DNA from: Catillopecten margaritatus gill symbiont
Lineage (GTDB): Bacteria > Pseudomonadota > Gammaproteobacteria > PS1 > Pseudothioglobaceae
Assembly (NCBI GenBank): GCA_037956075.1
Contig: CP138327.1
Span: 124,001 to 188,000 of the forward strand
DNA length: 64,000 bases
Direction: 5' to 3'
Shown here one piece after another: positions 2,879 to 34,952 of the stretch; position 1 is the stretch's first letter; each line of letters opens with the position of its first letter. A model generated the notes under the pieces. It was not told where the DNA came from and searched no databases. It worked only from the letters and a program-made list of their open reading frames with translations. A program made the position numbers and the translations under genes.

Positions 2879-3481
2879 ATGATGAAAAAAACATTAATTA
2901 AACCTATATTAACCGCCAGTGGATTGGTGTTGCTAATGTCCATAGGTCAAGTTCAAGCGTCGGCACCTAATGCGGAAGCGTTGAGTTACACTTGTGCAGG
3001 TTGTCATGGGACAAATGGTGCTAGCAATGGCCCATCCATTCCATCTTTAGCAGGTTTGTCTAAAGACTATTTGGTAGAAGCGATGGAGGCTTATAAGGAA
3101 GATGAAAGAAACCCAACCATTATGAATCGTATTGCTAAGGGTTACAGTACTAAGCAATTTGAGCAAATGGGTGATTTCTTCTCAGCACAGCCAGTGCATA
3201 TGATTAAAGGTCAAAAATTTGATAGTGCAAAAGCAAAAGCGGGCAAAAAATTACATAAGAAGTATTGCTCAAGTTGTCATTCAGAAGGGGGCACAGTAAC
3301 AGATGATGAAGCTGGACAATTAGCGGGGAATGCAGCAAATTTCTTAAGATTTGCCTTGGATGATTTCCACGCAGGTAGACGCGATATGCCAAAAAAGATG
3401 AAAAAGAAAATCAAAAAAATGTTGAAAAAAGACAAAGATGCATTTGAGAAATTAGTTCATTATTACAGTAAAGGAGAATAA
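2879..3481 (+). CDS. fccA: Di-haem cytochrome c, flavocytochrome c sulfide dehydrogenase cytochrome subunit type
   Basis: Periplasmic c-type cytochrome of 200 residues. It has a signal peptide ending near VQASA, then two haem sites: CAGCH near residue 40 and CSSCH near 130. The two-domain layout is that of cytochrome c4 and of the FccA subunit, which takes electrons from the FccB flavoprotein that oxidises sulfide. FccA is preferred because the next gene, 2 bp downstream, begins like FccB. The C-terminus is very lysine-rich. Two in-frame ATGs (2879 and 2882) follow the AGGGAG ribosome site at 2868-2873; the second has the better spacing. Because fccB is truncated, this cytochrome may have lost its partner or serve as a c4-type carrier. 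Confidence 0.8.
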   Translation: MMKKTLIKPILTASGLVLLMSIGQVQASAPNAEALSYTCAGCHGTNGASNGPSIPSLAGLSKDYLVEAMEAYKEDERNPTIMNRIAKGYSTKQFEQMGDFFSAQPVHMIKGQKFDSAKAKAGKKLHKKYCSSCHSEGGTVTDDEAGQLAGNAANFLRFALDDFHAGRRDMPKKMKKKIKKMLKKDKDAFEKLVHYYSKGE

Positions 3482-3483
3482 TT

Positions 3484-3720
3484 ATGAGTAATCAACACAA
3501 TAGAAGAGATTTTTTAAAAATAGCAGGTGCAAGTGGTCTTGCCGCAACGGCGGCTTTATACACGCCATTTGCGATTGGCGGCTCGGGCAAAAATGTTGTT
3601 ATTATCGGCGGCGGTATGGGTGGTGTGCCAAATATTGAATTGGAGACGGACAGATGCAATGGTTGTGGCGCTTGCGTTGGTATATGTCCCAAAAGTGCTA
3701 TTGCCCTAATCCAAAAATAG
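3484..3720 (+). pseudogene. Truncated fccB 5' end fused to a 4Fe-4S ferredoxin-like tail
   Basis: A 78-codon open frame with two unrelated parts. Residues 1-47 look like the start of FccB: a twin-arginine signal (RRDFLKIAG), then a dinucleotide-binding strand ending VVIIGGGMGG. Normal FccB continues for about 380 more residues, but here it switches directly to ELETDRCNGCGACVGICPK, a CxxCxxCxxxCP 4Fe-4S motif that is not part of FccB. The last codons and stop lie in a repeat element that starts at 3704. A deletion joining two genes is the simplest reading. The alternative is a genuine small Tat-exported ferredoxin, but the half Rossmann motif argues against that. Confidence 0.6.
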
Positions 3721-3908
3721 AAAGTGTGAATATGGCGTTAAGCCTTGCTATCACAGTGTTTTAAAAAAATATTAGTGCCACCCAGTGGTTCCACGGTGAT
3801 TTTTTTTGAAATACCCCAGGGTAGCCTCTCTTGGCTAAAGCCAATTCACCTTCTACTGTGGTAGTGAGGATTGGTATCAGATTTGCATTTTCTATTTTTG
3901 GATTAGGG
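3704..3908. repeat. 205-bp element bounded by 20-bp inverted repeats
   Basis: The left end CCCTAATCCAAAAATAGAAA (3704-3723) is repeated exactly in inverted orientation at 3889-3908. The interior has no convincing gene but has small palindromes such as TTGGCTAAAGCCAA near 3829. The first 32 bp (3704-3735) recur between hsdR and radC, where a second element has inserted into them. Together this suggests a non-autonomous mobile element or miniature transposon. The remaining bases to 4008 hold only the leader of the efflux gene; a 73-codon reverse reading frame across the element is not believed to be a gene. Confidence 0.55.
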
Positions 3909-4008
3909 TATTGATATGAAGGCAATAGGGGGCTCAATATAGGGTAAAATGGCGAAGTTACGATAAACTTATTATTCTCCATATTTCATATTCTTAACAA
4001 GGTAAGCC

Positions 4009-30605: not shown

Positions 30606-31633
30606 CCCCTTCATCTAACAATTCCGAAATCATCCTCTACACCACTCCTGATGGCACAGTCAAAATCGATACCATTTTTCAGGATGAAACCGTTTGGCTG
30701 ACTCAGAAAAAAATGGCAGAACTCTTTGCCGTTAATGTACCTGCTATTTCAAAACATTTAAGCAATATATTTAATGAAGGGGAGTTACAGAAGGAAGCAA
30801 CACTTTCCAAAATGGAAACAGTTCAAAAAGAGGGTAGTCGTTCTATTACTCGAAGTAAGGATTTTTACAACCTTGATGCTATTATTGCCGTTGGATACAG
30901 AGTTAACTCCAAACAAGCGACTCAGTTTAGAATGTGGGCGACTAATATCCTAAAAGAGTACATCATTAAGGGTTTTTCTATGGATGATGAGCGTTTAAAA
31001 CAGGTTGATAATTGGAATTACTTTGATGAGTGGTTAGAACGCATCCGAGATATTCGAGCTTCGGAAAAACGGTTTTATCAAAAAATTAAGGATATTTACA
31101 CCACGGCTATTGATTATGACAAAAATTCTGAACAGGCACAAATATTCTTTAAAAAAATACAGAATAAAATGCTTTGGGCAATTATAGGGCAAACGGCTGC
31201 TGAACTGATCAAAGCCAGAAGCAACCCCGATAAAACCAATATGGGGCTTACTTCATGGCGAGGTTCAATTATAAGAAAGCAAGATGTTGCCATCGCAAAA
31301 AATTACCTGAAAGAGGATGAAATAAAAGACCTGAATGAAATTGTTACCATGTATCTGGATTATGCAGAAAGACAGGCACGCAAAAGACAAACCGTTACAA
31401 TGGAGCAGTGGGCGGATAAACTGGATGGTTTTTTAGCATTTAATGAGCAGGAAATTTTGACTCACGCTGGAAAAGTAAAAGCAGAAGTGGCAAAAAAAAT
31501 TGCTGAAGCCCGTTATATGGAATTTGACGATAAACGCAAAAAAGCTGAAGCATTAGCAGCGGACGAAGAAGATATAAAGCAGCTTGAGGAAATAGAAAAG
31601 ATATTGTTTGAAGGTTGGGGAAAACAATCATGA
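30602..31633 (+). CDS. RhuM-family protein, copy 2
   Basis: 343 residues, clearly paralogous to the protein at 25593 but diverged. Shared blocks include GFSMDDERLK, RASEKRFYQKIKDI, QTAAELI and GSIIRKQD. It has the same layout: N-terminal DNA-binding-like region (VWLTQKKMAELFAVNVPAIS), conserved core, and a charged helical C-terminus (KRKKAEALAADEEDIKQLEE). It is coupled by ATGA to the truncated hsdR copy upstream and to the intact hsdR downstream, so it sits exactly at an hsdR start codon. Function is unknown for the family. Confidence 0.85.
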   Translation: MTPSSNNSEIILYTTPDGTVKIDTIFQDETVWLTQKKMAELFAVNVPAISKHLSNIFNEGELQKEATLSKMETVQKEGSRSITRSKDFYNLDAIIAVGYRVNSKQATQFRMWATNILKEYIIKGFSMDDERLKQVDNWNYFDEWLERIRDIRASEKRFYQKIKDIYTTAIDYDKNSEQAQIFFKKIQNKMLWAIIGQTAAELIKARSNPDKTNMGLTSWRGSIIRKQDVAIAKNYLKEDEIKDLNEIVTMYLDYAERQARKRQTVTMEQWADKLDGFLAFNEQEILTHAGKVKAEVAKKIAEARYMEFDDKRKKAEALAADEEDIKQLEEIEKILFEGWGKQS

Positions 31634-31837
31634 ACGAAGCCGAAACCAGAGCCGAATTAATTGACCCGAAACTCTTAGCCAATGGCTGGGGTGTGATAGA
31701 GGGTTCTAAAATTTTGCGTGAGCGAGATGTTTGTAAAATTACCGATGGCAGAATACAGGTGGGTGGCGGTAGGGCAAAGCCGTTGATTGCGGATTATATT
31801 TTGGTTTGTAAGGGGGTTAAATTAGCGGTTGTTGAGG
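31627..31837 (+). repeat. Direct repeat, right copy (hsdR 5' end)
   Basis: The second copy of the 211-bp repeat, here in its original setting at the start of the intact hsdR. See the left copy at 30348. Confidence 0.95.
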
Positions 31838-34017
31838 CAAAGAGTGATGAATTAGAGGTTAGTGAGGGTGTGGCACAAGCCAAACTTTATGCGCAAAAAT
31901 TGGGACTGGATTACACTTATTCTACTAATGGTAAAGTCATTTATCAGGTTTGTTTGAAAACTGGGGAAGAAAAAACAGTGGCTGATTTTTTAACGCCAAA
32001 TGAGCTTTGGGATGCGGTTTATAGCGATCAAAACCAGTGGCGTGAAAGGTTTGCATCAATACCGTTTGAGGATAAATCAGGCACTTGGCAGTTAAGATAT
32101 TATCAAGAAATCGCCATAAAAAACACGCTAGAGGCGATTGCACAAAATAAACAGCGTATTTTGCTAACCCTTGCCACAGGTACAGGAAAAACGGCAATTG
32201 CTTTTCAAATTGCTTGGAAATTGTTTTACAGTCGTTGGACGCTAAGCCGTGATGGGGCGAGGCAACCTCGTATTTTATTTTTGGCAGATAGAAACATACT
32301 GGCGAATCAGGCATTTAATAGTTTTTCTGCTTTTGCTGAGGATGCAATGGTGAGAATTACCCCAAAAGAGATTAAAAAAACAGGTAAAGTGCCGACTAAT
32401 GGCAGTCTGTTTTTTACCATTTTTCAATCCCTAACTGCCAATAACAACACGGTAGAAGAAGCAGAAATTGAAAAAAATGATTATAAAGGTTATGATAAAA
32501 CAACGGCTTATTATAATAAATACCCAAAAGATTTTTTTGATTTAATTATTGTTGACGAGTGCCATAGAGGCGGGGCAAATGATGAGAGCAGTTGGCGAGG
32601 TATTTTGGCATATTTTTCTCCTGCGGTGCACTTGGGTTTAACCGCAACCCCAAAGCGAAATAAGAATATTGATACTTATCAATATTTTGGCGAACCTGTT
32701 TATGTTTATCCTCTAAAAGAAGGCATTAACGATGGTTTTTTAACACCTTTTAAAGTCAAACGCATTAGCACAACGATGGACGATTATACTTATACGACTG
32801 ATGATGAGGTCGTTGAGGGGGTTGCTGAACCTGGGAAGTTGTATGGAGAGTCAGAATTTAATAAAACCATTGAAATTAAAGAACGAGAGTTGAAACGGGT
32901 TAGGGTTTTGATGGGTGAAATCAATCAAAGTGAAAAAACCATTATTTTTTGTGCCACACAAAGCCACGCAGGATTGGTTAGAGATTTAATTAACCAAGTG
33001 AGCGACTCTAAAAATGTTGATTATTGTGTGCGAGTAACGGCAAATGATGGGGTAATTGGCGATAATTTTTTAAGCCAATTTCAAGATAATGAAAAAACCA
33101 TTCCGACCGTTCTCACCACTTCGCAAAAACTCTCAACGGGGGTTGATGCCAGAAATATTCGCAATATTGTGTTAATGCGGCCCGTTAATCAAATGATTGA
33201 ATTTAAACAAATTATTGGACGCGGCACACGACTTTTTGAAGGTAAAGAGTTTTTTACTGTTTATGATTTTGTTGATGCTTATCAACAGTTTTTTGACCTA
33301 GAGTGGGACGGAGAGCCTATAGAACCTATAAAACCTGAGGAACAAAACCTAAGAGACACAGAAGATTGCCGTCAATGCGGGGGTAATCCTTGTGTTTGCA
33401 CTAAAGAGCCAAAAGATCAAAGACCTCAAAAAATTAAAATTAAATTGAGTGACGGCAAAGAGAGAGAAATACAACATATGGTTGCCACTTCTTTTTGGGA
33501 TATTAGTGGCAAGCCAATTTCAACAACAGAATTTTTAAACAATCTGTTTGAAGAATTGCCTAATTTCTTTAAAGATGAAGAGGAGTTGAGGGTTTTATGG
33601 AGCAAGCCTAAAACTAGAAAAGCACTACTAGAAAAATTAAGCGAGGCAGGATTTGGTGGCGATGAATTAAACACTTTGAAAAAAATAATAAATGCTGAAA
33701 AAAGTGATTTATTTGATGTTTTAAACTATGTTTTTAATAGTGACATTAAACCCATCAGTAGGAAGGAAAGAGTGGTACGGGCAAGAGCTGAGATATTGAC
33801 ACCTTTGGATAAAAAGCAACAAGATTTTATAGAATTTGTATTAAATAAATACATTGAAATAGGCGTTGGGGAGCTTGGTCAAGAGAAGCTACCTCTTTTA
33901 CTAATAAACAAGTACCAGTCATTGGAAGATGCTAAAACTGTGTTAGGTGATGTGGAAAATATCATTCCTTTGTTTGTTGATTTTCAAAAATATTTATATC
34001 AGTCAAAGGTTGCATAA
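31630..34017 (+). CDS. hsdR: Type I restriction endonuclease subunit HsdR
   Basis: Motor and nuclease subunit, 795 residues from the ATG at 31630 (the ATG of the rhuM ATGA overlap; a slightly earlier in-frame ATG at 31615 lies inside rhuM). The N-terminal nuclease domain has DYILVCKGVKLAVVEAKS, fitting the D...ExK core. The SF2 helicase core follows: LATGTGKTAIAF near residue 180, IIVDECHRGG near 307, GLTATPKRN, and motif VI IGRGTRLF near 529. A cysteine cluster CRQCGGNPCVC near 587 precedes the C-terminal helical part. Size and motifs resemble the EcoEI-like branch. It looks intact, but without a working hsdS the complex may be inactive. Confidence 0.93.
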   Translation: MNEAETRAELIDPKLLANGWGVIEGSKILRERDVCKITDGRIQVGGGRAKPLIADYILVCKGVKLAVVEAKSDELEVSEGVAQAKLYAQKLGLDYTYSTNGKVIYQVCLKTGEEKTVADFLTPNELWDAVYSDQNQWRERFASIPFEDKSGTWQLRYYQEIAIKNTLEAIAQNKQRILLTLATGTGKTAIAFQIAWKLFYSRWTLSRDGARQPRILFLADRNILANQAFNSFSAFAEDAMVRITPKEIKKTGKVPTNGSLFFTIFQSLTANNNTVEEAEIEKNDYKGYDKTTAYYNKYPKDFFDLIIVDECHRGGANDESSWRGILAYFSPAVHLGLTATPKRNKNIDTYQYFGEPVYVYPLKEGINDGFLTPFKVKRISTTMDDYTYTTDDEVVEGVAEPGKLYGESEFNKTIEIKERELKRVRVLMGEINQSEKTIIFCATQSHAGLVRDLINQVSDSKNVDYCVRVTANDGVIGDNFLSQFQDNEKTIPTVLTTSQKLSTGVDARNIRNIVLMRPVNQMIEFKQIIGRGTRLFEGKEFFTVYDFVDAYQQFFDLEWDGEPIEPIKPEEQNLRDTEDCRQCGGNPCVCTKEPKDQRPQKIKIKLSDGKEREIQHMVATSFWDISGKPISTTEFLNNLFEELPNFFKDEEELRVLWSKPKTRKALLEKLSEAGFGGDELNTLKKIINAEKSDLFDVLNYVFNSDIKPISRKERVVRARAEILTPLDKKQQDFIEFVLNKYIEIGVGELGQEKLPLLLINKYQSLEDAKTVLGDVENIIPLFVDFQKYLYQSKVA

Positions 34018-34056
34018 AATGTGCTTTCAATGTCCAACAGTCCCAAAACACAATAA

Positions 34057-34085
34057 CCCTAATCCAAAAATAGAAAGTGTGAATA
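34057..34085 (+). repeat. Left part of the 32-bp repeat shared with 3704-3735, split by the MITE
   Basis: These 29 bases, plus TGG at 34254-34256 on the far side of the inserted element and its target duplication, rebuild exactly the 32-bp sequence found at 3704-3735. No inverted partner was seen here, so only one end of that element may be present. Confidence 0.8.
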
Positions 34086-34248
34086 GAGACCCCTGCATTG
34101 GGTATGAATACCGCCTAAAAGCCAACTTTCATCCATTTGATAACTTTTACAAAACCTGTATTAACCCTGCTAGGACTGGCTTTGTAAAAATTACCAACTG
34201 AATAAAATTTAACTTTTATCCGGTATTCATACCCAATGCAGGGGTCTC
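34086..34248. mobile_element. 163-bp MITE-like hairpin element with 5-bp target duplication
   Basis: The ends are 28-bp exact inverted repeats (34086-34113 and 34221-34248) beginning GAGACCCCTGCATTGGG. The directly repeated GAATA at 34081-34085 and 34249-34253 is the expected target duplication. The interior also pairs with itself almost to the centre, mostly with changes compatible with G-U pairing, so the whole element folds as one long hairpin. Both strands therefore read similar short peptides (CIGYEYR), which are not genes. No transposase is encoded. Confidence 0.85.
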
Positions 34249-34274
34249 GAATATGGAATAATGGCAAATAAATT

Positions 34275-34952
34275 ATGGCAATAACAGACTGGCACGAAAA
34301 CGATAAACCAAGAGAAAAGCTTCTAAAATTTGGGGCAGGGAGTTTGACGGATGCAGAATTGCTAGCAATTTTTTTACGCACGGGAATCAAAGGCAAGAGT
34401 GCAGTGGGGTTGGCACAGGATTTGATAGAGCAGTTTGGGTCGTTGCATAAATTATTAACAGCGAGTGAGAATGAATTTTGTAAAGGCAAAGGCTTGGGGG
34501 CGGCGAAGTACGCCGCACTTCAAGGAGTGATGGAGATGGCAAAACGGCATTTTGAATCAGGGGCAAAAATGGGTGAGGTGTTTAATCAACCTAAGCAGAT
34601 TGCGCGTTATTTGCATTTGCATATTGGCAATTCGAGTCGGGAGATTTTTGCGGTGATGTTGTTGGATCAGAAACACCATTTGATTGAATTGGTGCCATTA
34701 TTTACGGGGACGCTGAATCAGGCAAGTGTGCATCCACGGGAGATTTTGAAACTGGTTTTGTTGAAAGATGCATCGGCGGTGGTATTGGCACATAACCACC
34801 CATCGGGCGACCCAACGCCGTCGCAAGCGGATATCAATATTACCTATACAATTAAAGAAGCGTTAGCGTTGATTAATGTTCGGGTGTTGGATCATATTGT
34901 GATTGGCGACGGTGGGCGATTTGAGAGTTTGGCACAAAGAGAGGACTTATGA
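34275..34952 (+). CDS. radC: RadC-family JAB-domain protein
   Basis: 225 residues, standard RadC/YicR length. An N-terminal helix-hairpin-helix-like region ([20 protein letters not shown]) precedes the JAB/MPN metalloprotease-like domain with metal motif [15 protein letters not shown] near residue 172. The old DNA-repair assignment of RadC in E. coli was withdrawn, so its function is unsettled. It starts 27 bp after the MITE, which may have replaced its native upstream region. Its stop forms an ATGA with mtgA. Confidence 0.92.

What the first reader, a model, noticed from the sequence alone, without database searches (positions are those of the whole stretch)
34057..34256. Nested mobile elements: a MITE with a GAATA target duplication inside a 32-bp repeat shared with the fcc locus
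The 163-bp element 34086-34248 has 28-bp exact inverted ends and is flanked by GAATA on both sides. Removing the element and one GAATA restores, base for base, the 32-bp sequence found at 3704-3735. The second locus is thus an empty-site control within the same window. The interior also folds to near the centre with changes compatible with G-U pairs, suggesting selection on an RNA hairpin.
Basis: seen in the sequence. Interest (0 to 1): 0.6.

Follow-up and report, generated by a model that had tools for sequence, protein, structure and literature searches.

The report
MITE nested inside another MITE
A 163-base "jumping" DNA element with no genes of its own landed inside the remains of a second, unrelated small jumping element; both kinds are common in these bacteria, and the first belongs to a family that has spread through related genomes and keeps an unusually well-preserved one-strand hairpin.

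Summary
Window 34086-34248 is a 163-bp palindromic MITE ("MITE1") with exact 28-bp inverted ends and a GAATA duplication. The genome holds 17 near-full copies; 10 have an exact 5-bp duplication at the same ends. The "32-bp repeat shared with the fcc locus" is the end of a second MITE ("MITE2", about 205 bp, intact at 3704-3908 with TATTG duplications). At 34057 MITE2 is an internally deleted remnant with its own AATAA duplication; a sister genome shows the empty site. The order was MITE2, deletion, MITE1.

Autonomous elements with matching ends were found in relatives: IS5-family for MITE1, IS1380-like for MITE2. No cognate IS5 transposase was found in the window's genome. A 161-bp sister MITE occurs in 31 of 83 genomes of the family; one genome carries at least 108 identical copies.

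The hairpin claim is partly upheld. One strand (window minus) folds much better (-101 vs -72 kcal/mol), its G-U bias arose at different pairs in different lineages, and there are about 20 compensatory pairs. But that strand is preferentially antisense to flanking genes, so a role in host mRNA is unlikely. This is a new member of a known kind.

The parts
34086..34248 (-). MITE1, 163-bp palindromic non-autonomous element; strand given is the one that folds better
34086..34113 (+). MITE1 left terminal inverted repeat, 28 bp exact (GAGACCCCTGCATTGGGTATGAATACCG reads inward)
34221..34248 (-). MITE1 right terminal inverted repeat, 28 bp exact
34081..34085 (.). GAATA target-site duplication of MITE1, left copy
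34249..34253 (.). GAATA target-site duplication of MITE1, right copy
34057..34085 (+). remnant of MITE2 (left TIR and adjacent bases; with 34254-34256 = 32 bp), split by MITE1
34254..34256 (+). last 3 bp (TGG) of the MITE2 remnant
34052..34056 (.). AATAA target-site duplication of MITE2, left copy; the sister genome G001 has a single AATAA (ACAATAATGGC)
34257..34261 (.). AATAA target-site duplication of MITE2, right copy
3704..3908 (+). intact MITE2 copy, 205 bp, TIR CCCTAATCCAAAAATAG, imperfect palindrome
3699..3703 (.). TATTG target-site duplication of the fcc-locus MITE2, left copy
3909..3913 (.). TATTG target-site duplication of the fcc-locus MITE2, right copy
31615..34017 (+). upstream gene: restriction-enzyme R (HsdR-like) subunit, context only
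34275..34952 (+). downstream gene: radC, starts 27 bp after MITE1, context only

Best explanation
MITE1 is a non-autonomous element of the IS5 kind that was moved in trans by an IS5-family DDE transposase recognising (G/A)AGACCCCTGCATT ends and making 5-bp A/T-rich target duplications. It inserted into the remnant of MITE2, itself a non-autonomous element of the IS1380 kind that had inserted between the hsdR-like gene and radC with an AATAA duplication and then lost about 173 bp internally (breakpoints share GG). Shown: both elements, both duplications, the order of events, the multi-copy families, the 5-bp rule, and autonomous elements with the same TIR type in congeners. Inferred: that those transposases moved these copies, and that the cognate gene has since been lost from this genome. 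The element's long hairpin is a conserved property of the whole superfamily on one strand; what it is for is not shown.
For: 17 copies; 10 exact 5-bp duplications with the same ends. A second MITE1 insertion in a MITE2 end gives an independent nested case, L002, duplication TCTTT. MITE2 copies with exact 5-bp duplications. AATAA is single in the orthologous G001 site and duplicated here. IS of 1303 bp in G004 with ends AAGACCCCTGCATTA, 28 copies with open frames of at least 341 aa, 5-bp duplications, NCBIfam IS5 (178.9 bits against a cut-off of 140); 15-bp shared terminus with MITE1 subtype b. IS1380-like element of 1718 bp with MITE2-type ends, transposase in two frames. 161-bp sister MITE with 102 of 154 exact 5-bp duplications in half of G001, sharing a 17-bp terminus with a second IS5-family IS.
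Against: No IS5-family transposase with these ends was found in the window's genome, so mobilisation is inferred from a congener. MITE1 subtype a matches the G004 IS end at only 13 of 20 bases. Seven of 17 copies lack an exact 5-bp duplication. The IS1380 match is split over two frames and each piece is below the curated cut-off, and that copy shows no 5-bp duplication.
Confidence: 0.92

Rival explanations
1. The element is kept mainly as a functional RNA: its minus strand is transcribed into a long hairpin, for example an RNase III substrate or a stable antisense RNA, and selection on that RNA explains the pairing.
For: Minus strand folds to -101.1 against -71.9 kcal/mol; swapping arm letters at random never reached that difference in 300 trials. 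The same strand is stronger in 20 of 21 copies sampled across the family. About 20 double compensatory pairs between MITE1 and the G001 master. G-U to A-C states 16:1 for MITE1 plus G001 masters, at nearly disjoint pairs. New mutations show no strand bias (7 G>A, 6 C>T), which argues against a mutational cause.
Against: The strong strand lies antisense to flanking genes in 49 of 75 tandem settings, p=0.01. No Rfam family, no promoter or transcript evidence. Copies decay freely. Arms of a palindrome can also be homogenised by template switching.
Confidence: 0.2
2. The strand bias records selection against strong hairpins in host mRNA: elements whose sense-strand hairpin is weakened by A-C mismatches, and which sit in that orientation, survive better. 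The pairing itself comes from the palindromic origin.
For: Orientation bias (49 antisense to 26 sense) combined with weaker folding of that strand in nearly all copies.
Against: Does not by itself explain compensatory double changes in the interior; 26 of 75 copies still lie in the other orientation.
Confidence: 0.4
3. MITE1 and the 32-bp repeat are one composite repeat unit, or regulatory repeats such as REP/ERIC-type sequences, not two insertions.
For: 6 of 17 MITE1 copies lie in MITE2 sequence, more than expected.
Against: Most copies of each occur alone. Insertion points in MITE2 differ: in the TIR for L001 and L002, at the centre of a longer MITE2 variant for L011 and L015. Each layer has its own duplication.
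Confidence: 0.02

Closest known systems
Type II MITEs derived from IS5-family elements: ATR of Neisseria (proposed parent ISNme1) and BrickBuilt/MITEPgRS of Porphyromonas gingivalis (ISPg1/ISPg9) (PMC4596501)
   Same: Ends of the GAGACCTTTGCA type; similarity to the IS confined to the ends; no transposase gene; intergenic; about 20 copies per genome.
   Different: Interiors not reported as related; here the whole element is a near-complete palindrome with a regular 5-bp duplication, and MITE1 carries the altered GAGACCCCTGCATT end.
Correia/NEMIS, ERIC, RUP, QMITE palindromic MITEs of bacteria (reviews PMC2229807, PMC10969869)
   Same: 100-200 bp, long stem-loop in any transcript, TIRs with target duplications, insertion between genes.
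   Different: NEMIS RNA has been reported to be cut by RNase III; nothing comparable is shown here. Terminal sequence and duplication rule differ.
IS1380 family insertion sequences
   Same: MITE2 ends CCC(T/A)AATCC are those of a 1718-bp element whose two reading frames match the IS1380 model.
   Different: MITE2 keeps only the ends; the interior is its own imperfect palindrome.

Membership tests
MITE (non-autonomous DNA transposon) | short, with terminal inverted repeats and no transposase gene | tested here: met
   163 bp, 28-bp exact TIR; too short for a transposase gene
MITE (non-autonomous DNA transposon) | target-site duplication of constant length | tested here: met
   10 of 17 copies with exact 5 bp; sister element 102 of 154
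MITE (non-autonomous DNA transposon) | multiple dispersed copies and empty sites | tested here: met
   17 copies; empty MITE2 ends; orthologous radC loci without MITE1
IS5-family derived MITE | TIR shared with an autonomous IS5-family element | tested here: met
   subtype b shares 15 bp with the G004 IS, NCBIfam NF033581 over cut-off; subtype a weaker, 13 of 20
IS5-family derived MITE | autonomous partner in the same genome (usual, not strictly required) | tested here: not met
   only one DDE_Tnp_1 gene in G000, IS1182-like and without these ends
IS5-family derived MITE | moved in trans by that transposase | not testable with these tools
   needs a transposition assay
IS1380-derived MITE (MITE2) | TIR shared with an IS1380-family element | tested here: inconclusive
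   ends match; the two frames match NF033539 at E 2e-43 and 9e-32 but each is below the curated cut-off
NEMIS-like RNase III-processed repeat | transcribed hairpin cut by RNase III | not testable with these tools
   no RNA data

The most novel reading that the evidence does not exclude
A palindromic MITE superfamily whose interior hairpin is kept under strand-specific selection across several genera while its ends have diverged to match two different IS5-family transposases (about 34% identical), so that the cargo of the element is a conserved RNA (or single-stranded DNA) hairpin that changes mobilising partner.
Probability: 0.2. Interest if true: 0.6.

Novelty: new member of a known kind. Interest (0 to 1): 0.36.

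Why it matters
It gives an ordered nested-insertion history with two different duplications and a sister-genome empty site, and it points to a MITE family that has amplified to over a hundred identical copies in a related genome. The strand-biased, covarying hairpin gives a testable case for whether bacterial MITE hairpins are selected as nucleic-acid structures or are only by-products of palindromic origin.

Tried and rejected
Rfam search of the window: only two tRNAs. The TIR pattern in the public genome collection gave two Pelagibacteraceae hits in which the matched stretch does not continue as the element and has no second end; judged chance matches. The search for a cognate IS in the same genome found none at up to 3 mismatches in the TIR and none by protein. 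The single IS1182-like gene at G000:1362214 was considered as a partner for either MITE and rejected because no matching ends lie in the 3.7-kb stretch around it. RNAalifold on a MAFFT alignment of all types was uninformative because gaps broke the pairing register; an ungapped alignment with one symmetric pair removed was used instead.

Full report
Check of the observation. The element at 34086-34248, its 28-bp exact inverted ends, the GAATA duplications and the base-for-base match of the reconstructed site to 3704-3735 are all correct. The window lies at 124001-188000 of a single 1,542,691-bp contig.

The element family. The genome holds 17 near-full copies (83-100% identical) and fragments. 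Exact 5-bp duplications flank 10 of them: GAATA, TCTTT, AAAAT, AATTT, ATTAA, TGTTT, TAATA, TAAAA, CAAGG and CAATA; one more has 4 bp and one has 4 of 5 bases. Five copies lack a clear duplication, and four of these sit in rearranged MITE2 sequence. Two subtypes exist, GAGACCCCTGCATTGGG (a) and AAGACCCCTGCATTAGG (b). All 17 lie between predicted genes.

What the 32-bp repeat is. The copy at 3704 is the left end of a 205-bp imperfect palindrome, 3704-3908, with ends CCCTAATCCAAAAATAG and TATTG duplications. About 15 full or near-full relatives and many shorter ones occur in the genome; eight in the set examined have exact 5-bp duplications, counting the fcc copy. At 34057 only 32 bp of this element remain. 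The orthologous locus in G001 reads ACAATAATGGC with one AATAA, whereas here AATAA stands on both sides of the 32-bp remnant. So MITE2 inserted with a 5-bp duplication, lost its interior and right end (the breakpoints share GG), and MITE1 then inserted into the remnant. That MITE1 came after the deletion rather than before it is the simplest order, because the deletion breakpoint lies 3 bp outside MITE1's right duplication; the reverse order is not strictly excluded. G001 has its own, independent 161-bp sister MITE in the same intergenic region, with a TCCAA duplication, and G006 has what looks like a remnant of one; G004, G008 and G010 have short uninterrupted spacers there.

Nesting is recurrent. 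Six of 17 MITE1 copies lie in MITE2 sequence: L001 and L002 in the TIR, L011, L015 and L017 at or next to the centre of a longer MITE2 variant, L016 45 bp inside. MITE2 covers about 5 kb, roughly 3% of intergenic DNA if 10% of the genome is intergenic (an assumption). Six hits have a binomial probability near 1e-5, and four near 2e-3 if the central cases are not all independent. Safe-haven survival and target preference are not separated by this test.

Partner elements. No IS5-family transposase with matching ends was found in the window's genome. In congener G004 a 1303-bp IS with ends AAGACCCCTGCATTA, 28 copies with open frames of at least 341 aa, and 5-bp duplications matches NCBIfam IS5. 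A second IS5-family element in G003 and G008 (about 34% identical protein) has GAGACCTTTGCATAAAT ends, matching the 161-bp sister MITE over 17 bp. Ends of this type are known from ISNme1, ISPg1 and their MITEs (PMC4596501). A 1718-bp IS1380-like element in G006 carries MITE2-type ends.

Distribution. The sister MITE matches in 31 of 83 genomes of the family, 7 of 11 genera. In 1.2 Mb of G001 there are 154 full copies, 108 of them identical, and 102 with exact 5-bp duplications. The window's genome has at least ten sister copies as well.

The hairpin. The minus strand of the window folds at -101.1 kcal/mol and the plus strand at -71.9; randomly swapping arm letters at mismatched pairs never gave so large a difference in 300 trials. 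The same strand is stronger in 25 of 27 representatives from this genus and in 20 of 21 further copies, most of them from other genera of the family. Between MITE1 and the G001 master 20 pairs changed on both sides and kept pairing, 8 changed on one side and kept it, and 6 were broken. G-U against A-C states number 16 to 1 in those two masters, at positions that overlap in one pair only. Over all 8 masters compared the ratio is 26 to 9. Fresh mutations in G001 copies show no strand asymmetry. This points to past selection on one strand. However, in tandem gene settings that strand is antisense to the flanking genes in 49 of 75 cases (p=0.01), as it is in the window, where both neighbours are on the plus strand. 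Host mRNAs therefore tend to carry the weaker hairpin. I treat the RNA function as unproven, and selection against strong sense-strand hairpins as at least as likely.

Limits. Relatedness of copies inflates pair counts. Open reading frames stood in for annotation in the orientation test. Coverage of G001 was half a genome. An open-access literature search found no description of these elements in this group, but most subscription papers were not searched.

Noticed in passing
window 3484-3720: A 78-aa open frame with a TAT signal and one 4Fe-4S motif looks like a fused remnant beside a cytochrome c gene (2879-3481). Its last codons and stop are supplied by the MITE2 end, so the insertion closes the reading frame.
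   Followed up: partly
L196-L255 (1.2 Mb of congener G001): 154 full copies of the 161-bp sister MITE, 108 identical, a very recent burst; some stand close together and share the duplicated target sequence.
   Followed up: partly
L148, L149, L050: MITE1 insertions cluster within a few bases at the centre of the longer MITE2 palindrome (CCGAACCTATGGG), perhaps a hairpin-tip target; duplications there are irregular.
   Followed up: partly
G001 and G006 radC loci (L185, L190): The radC upstream spacer was hit by a MITE of the sister family independently in G001 and apparently also in G006.
   Followed up: partly
L088 (G000:1362214): The only DDE_Tnp_1 gene found in the window's genome, an IS1182-like fragment of 369 aa without recognisable ends.
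   Followed up: no
L063, L102 (G002): Two sister MITE copies carry an insertion of about 30 bp, CCAGCGA(T/C)ACCCAGCAGTCCTCTAGGAGG, at the same interior position; origin not examined.
   Followed up: no
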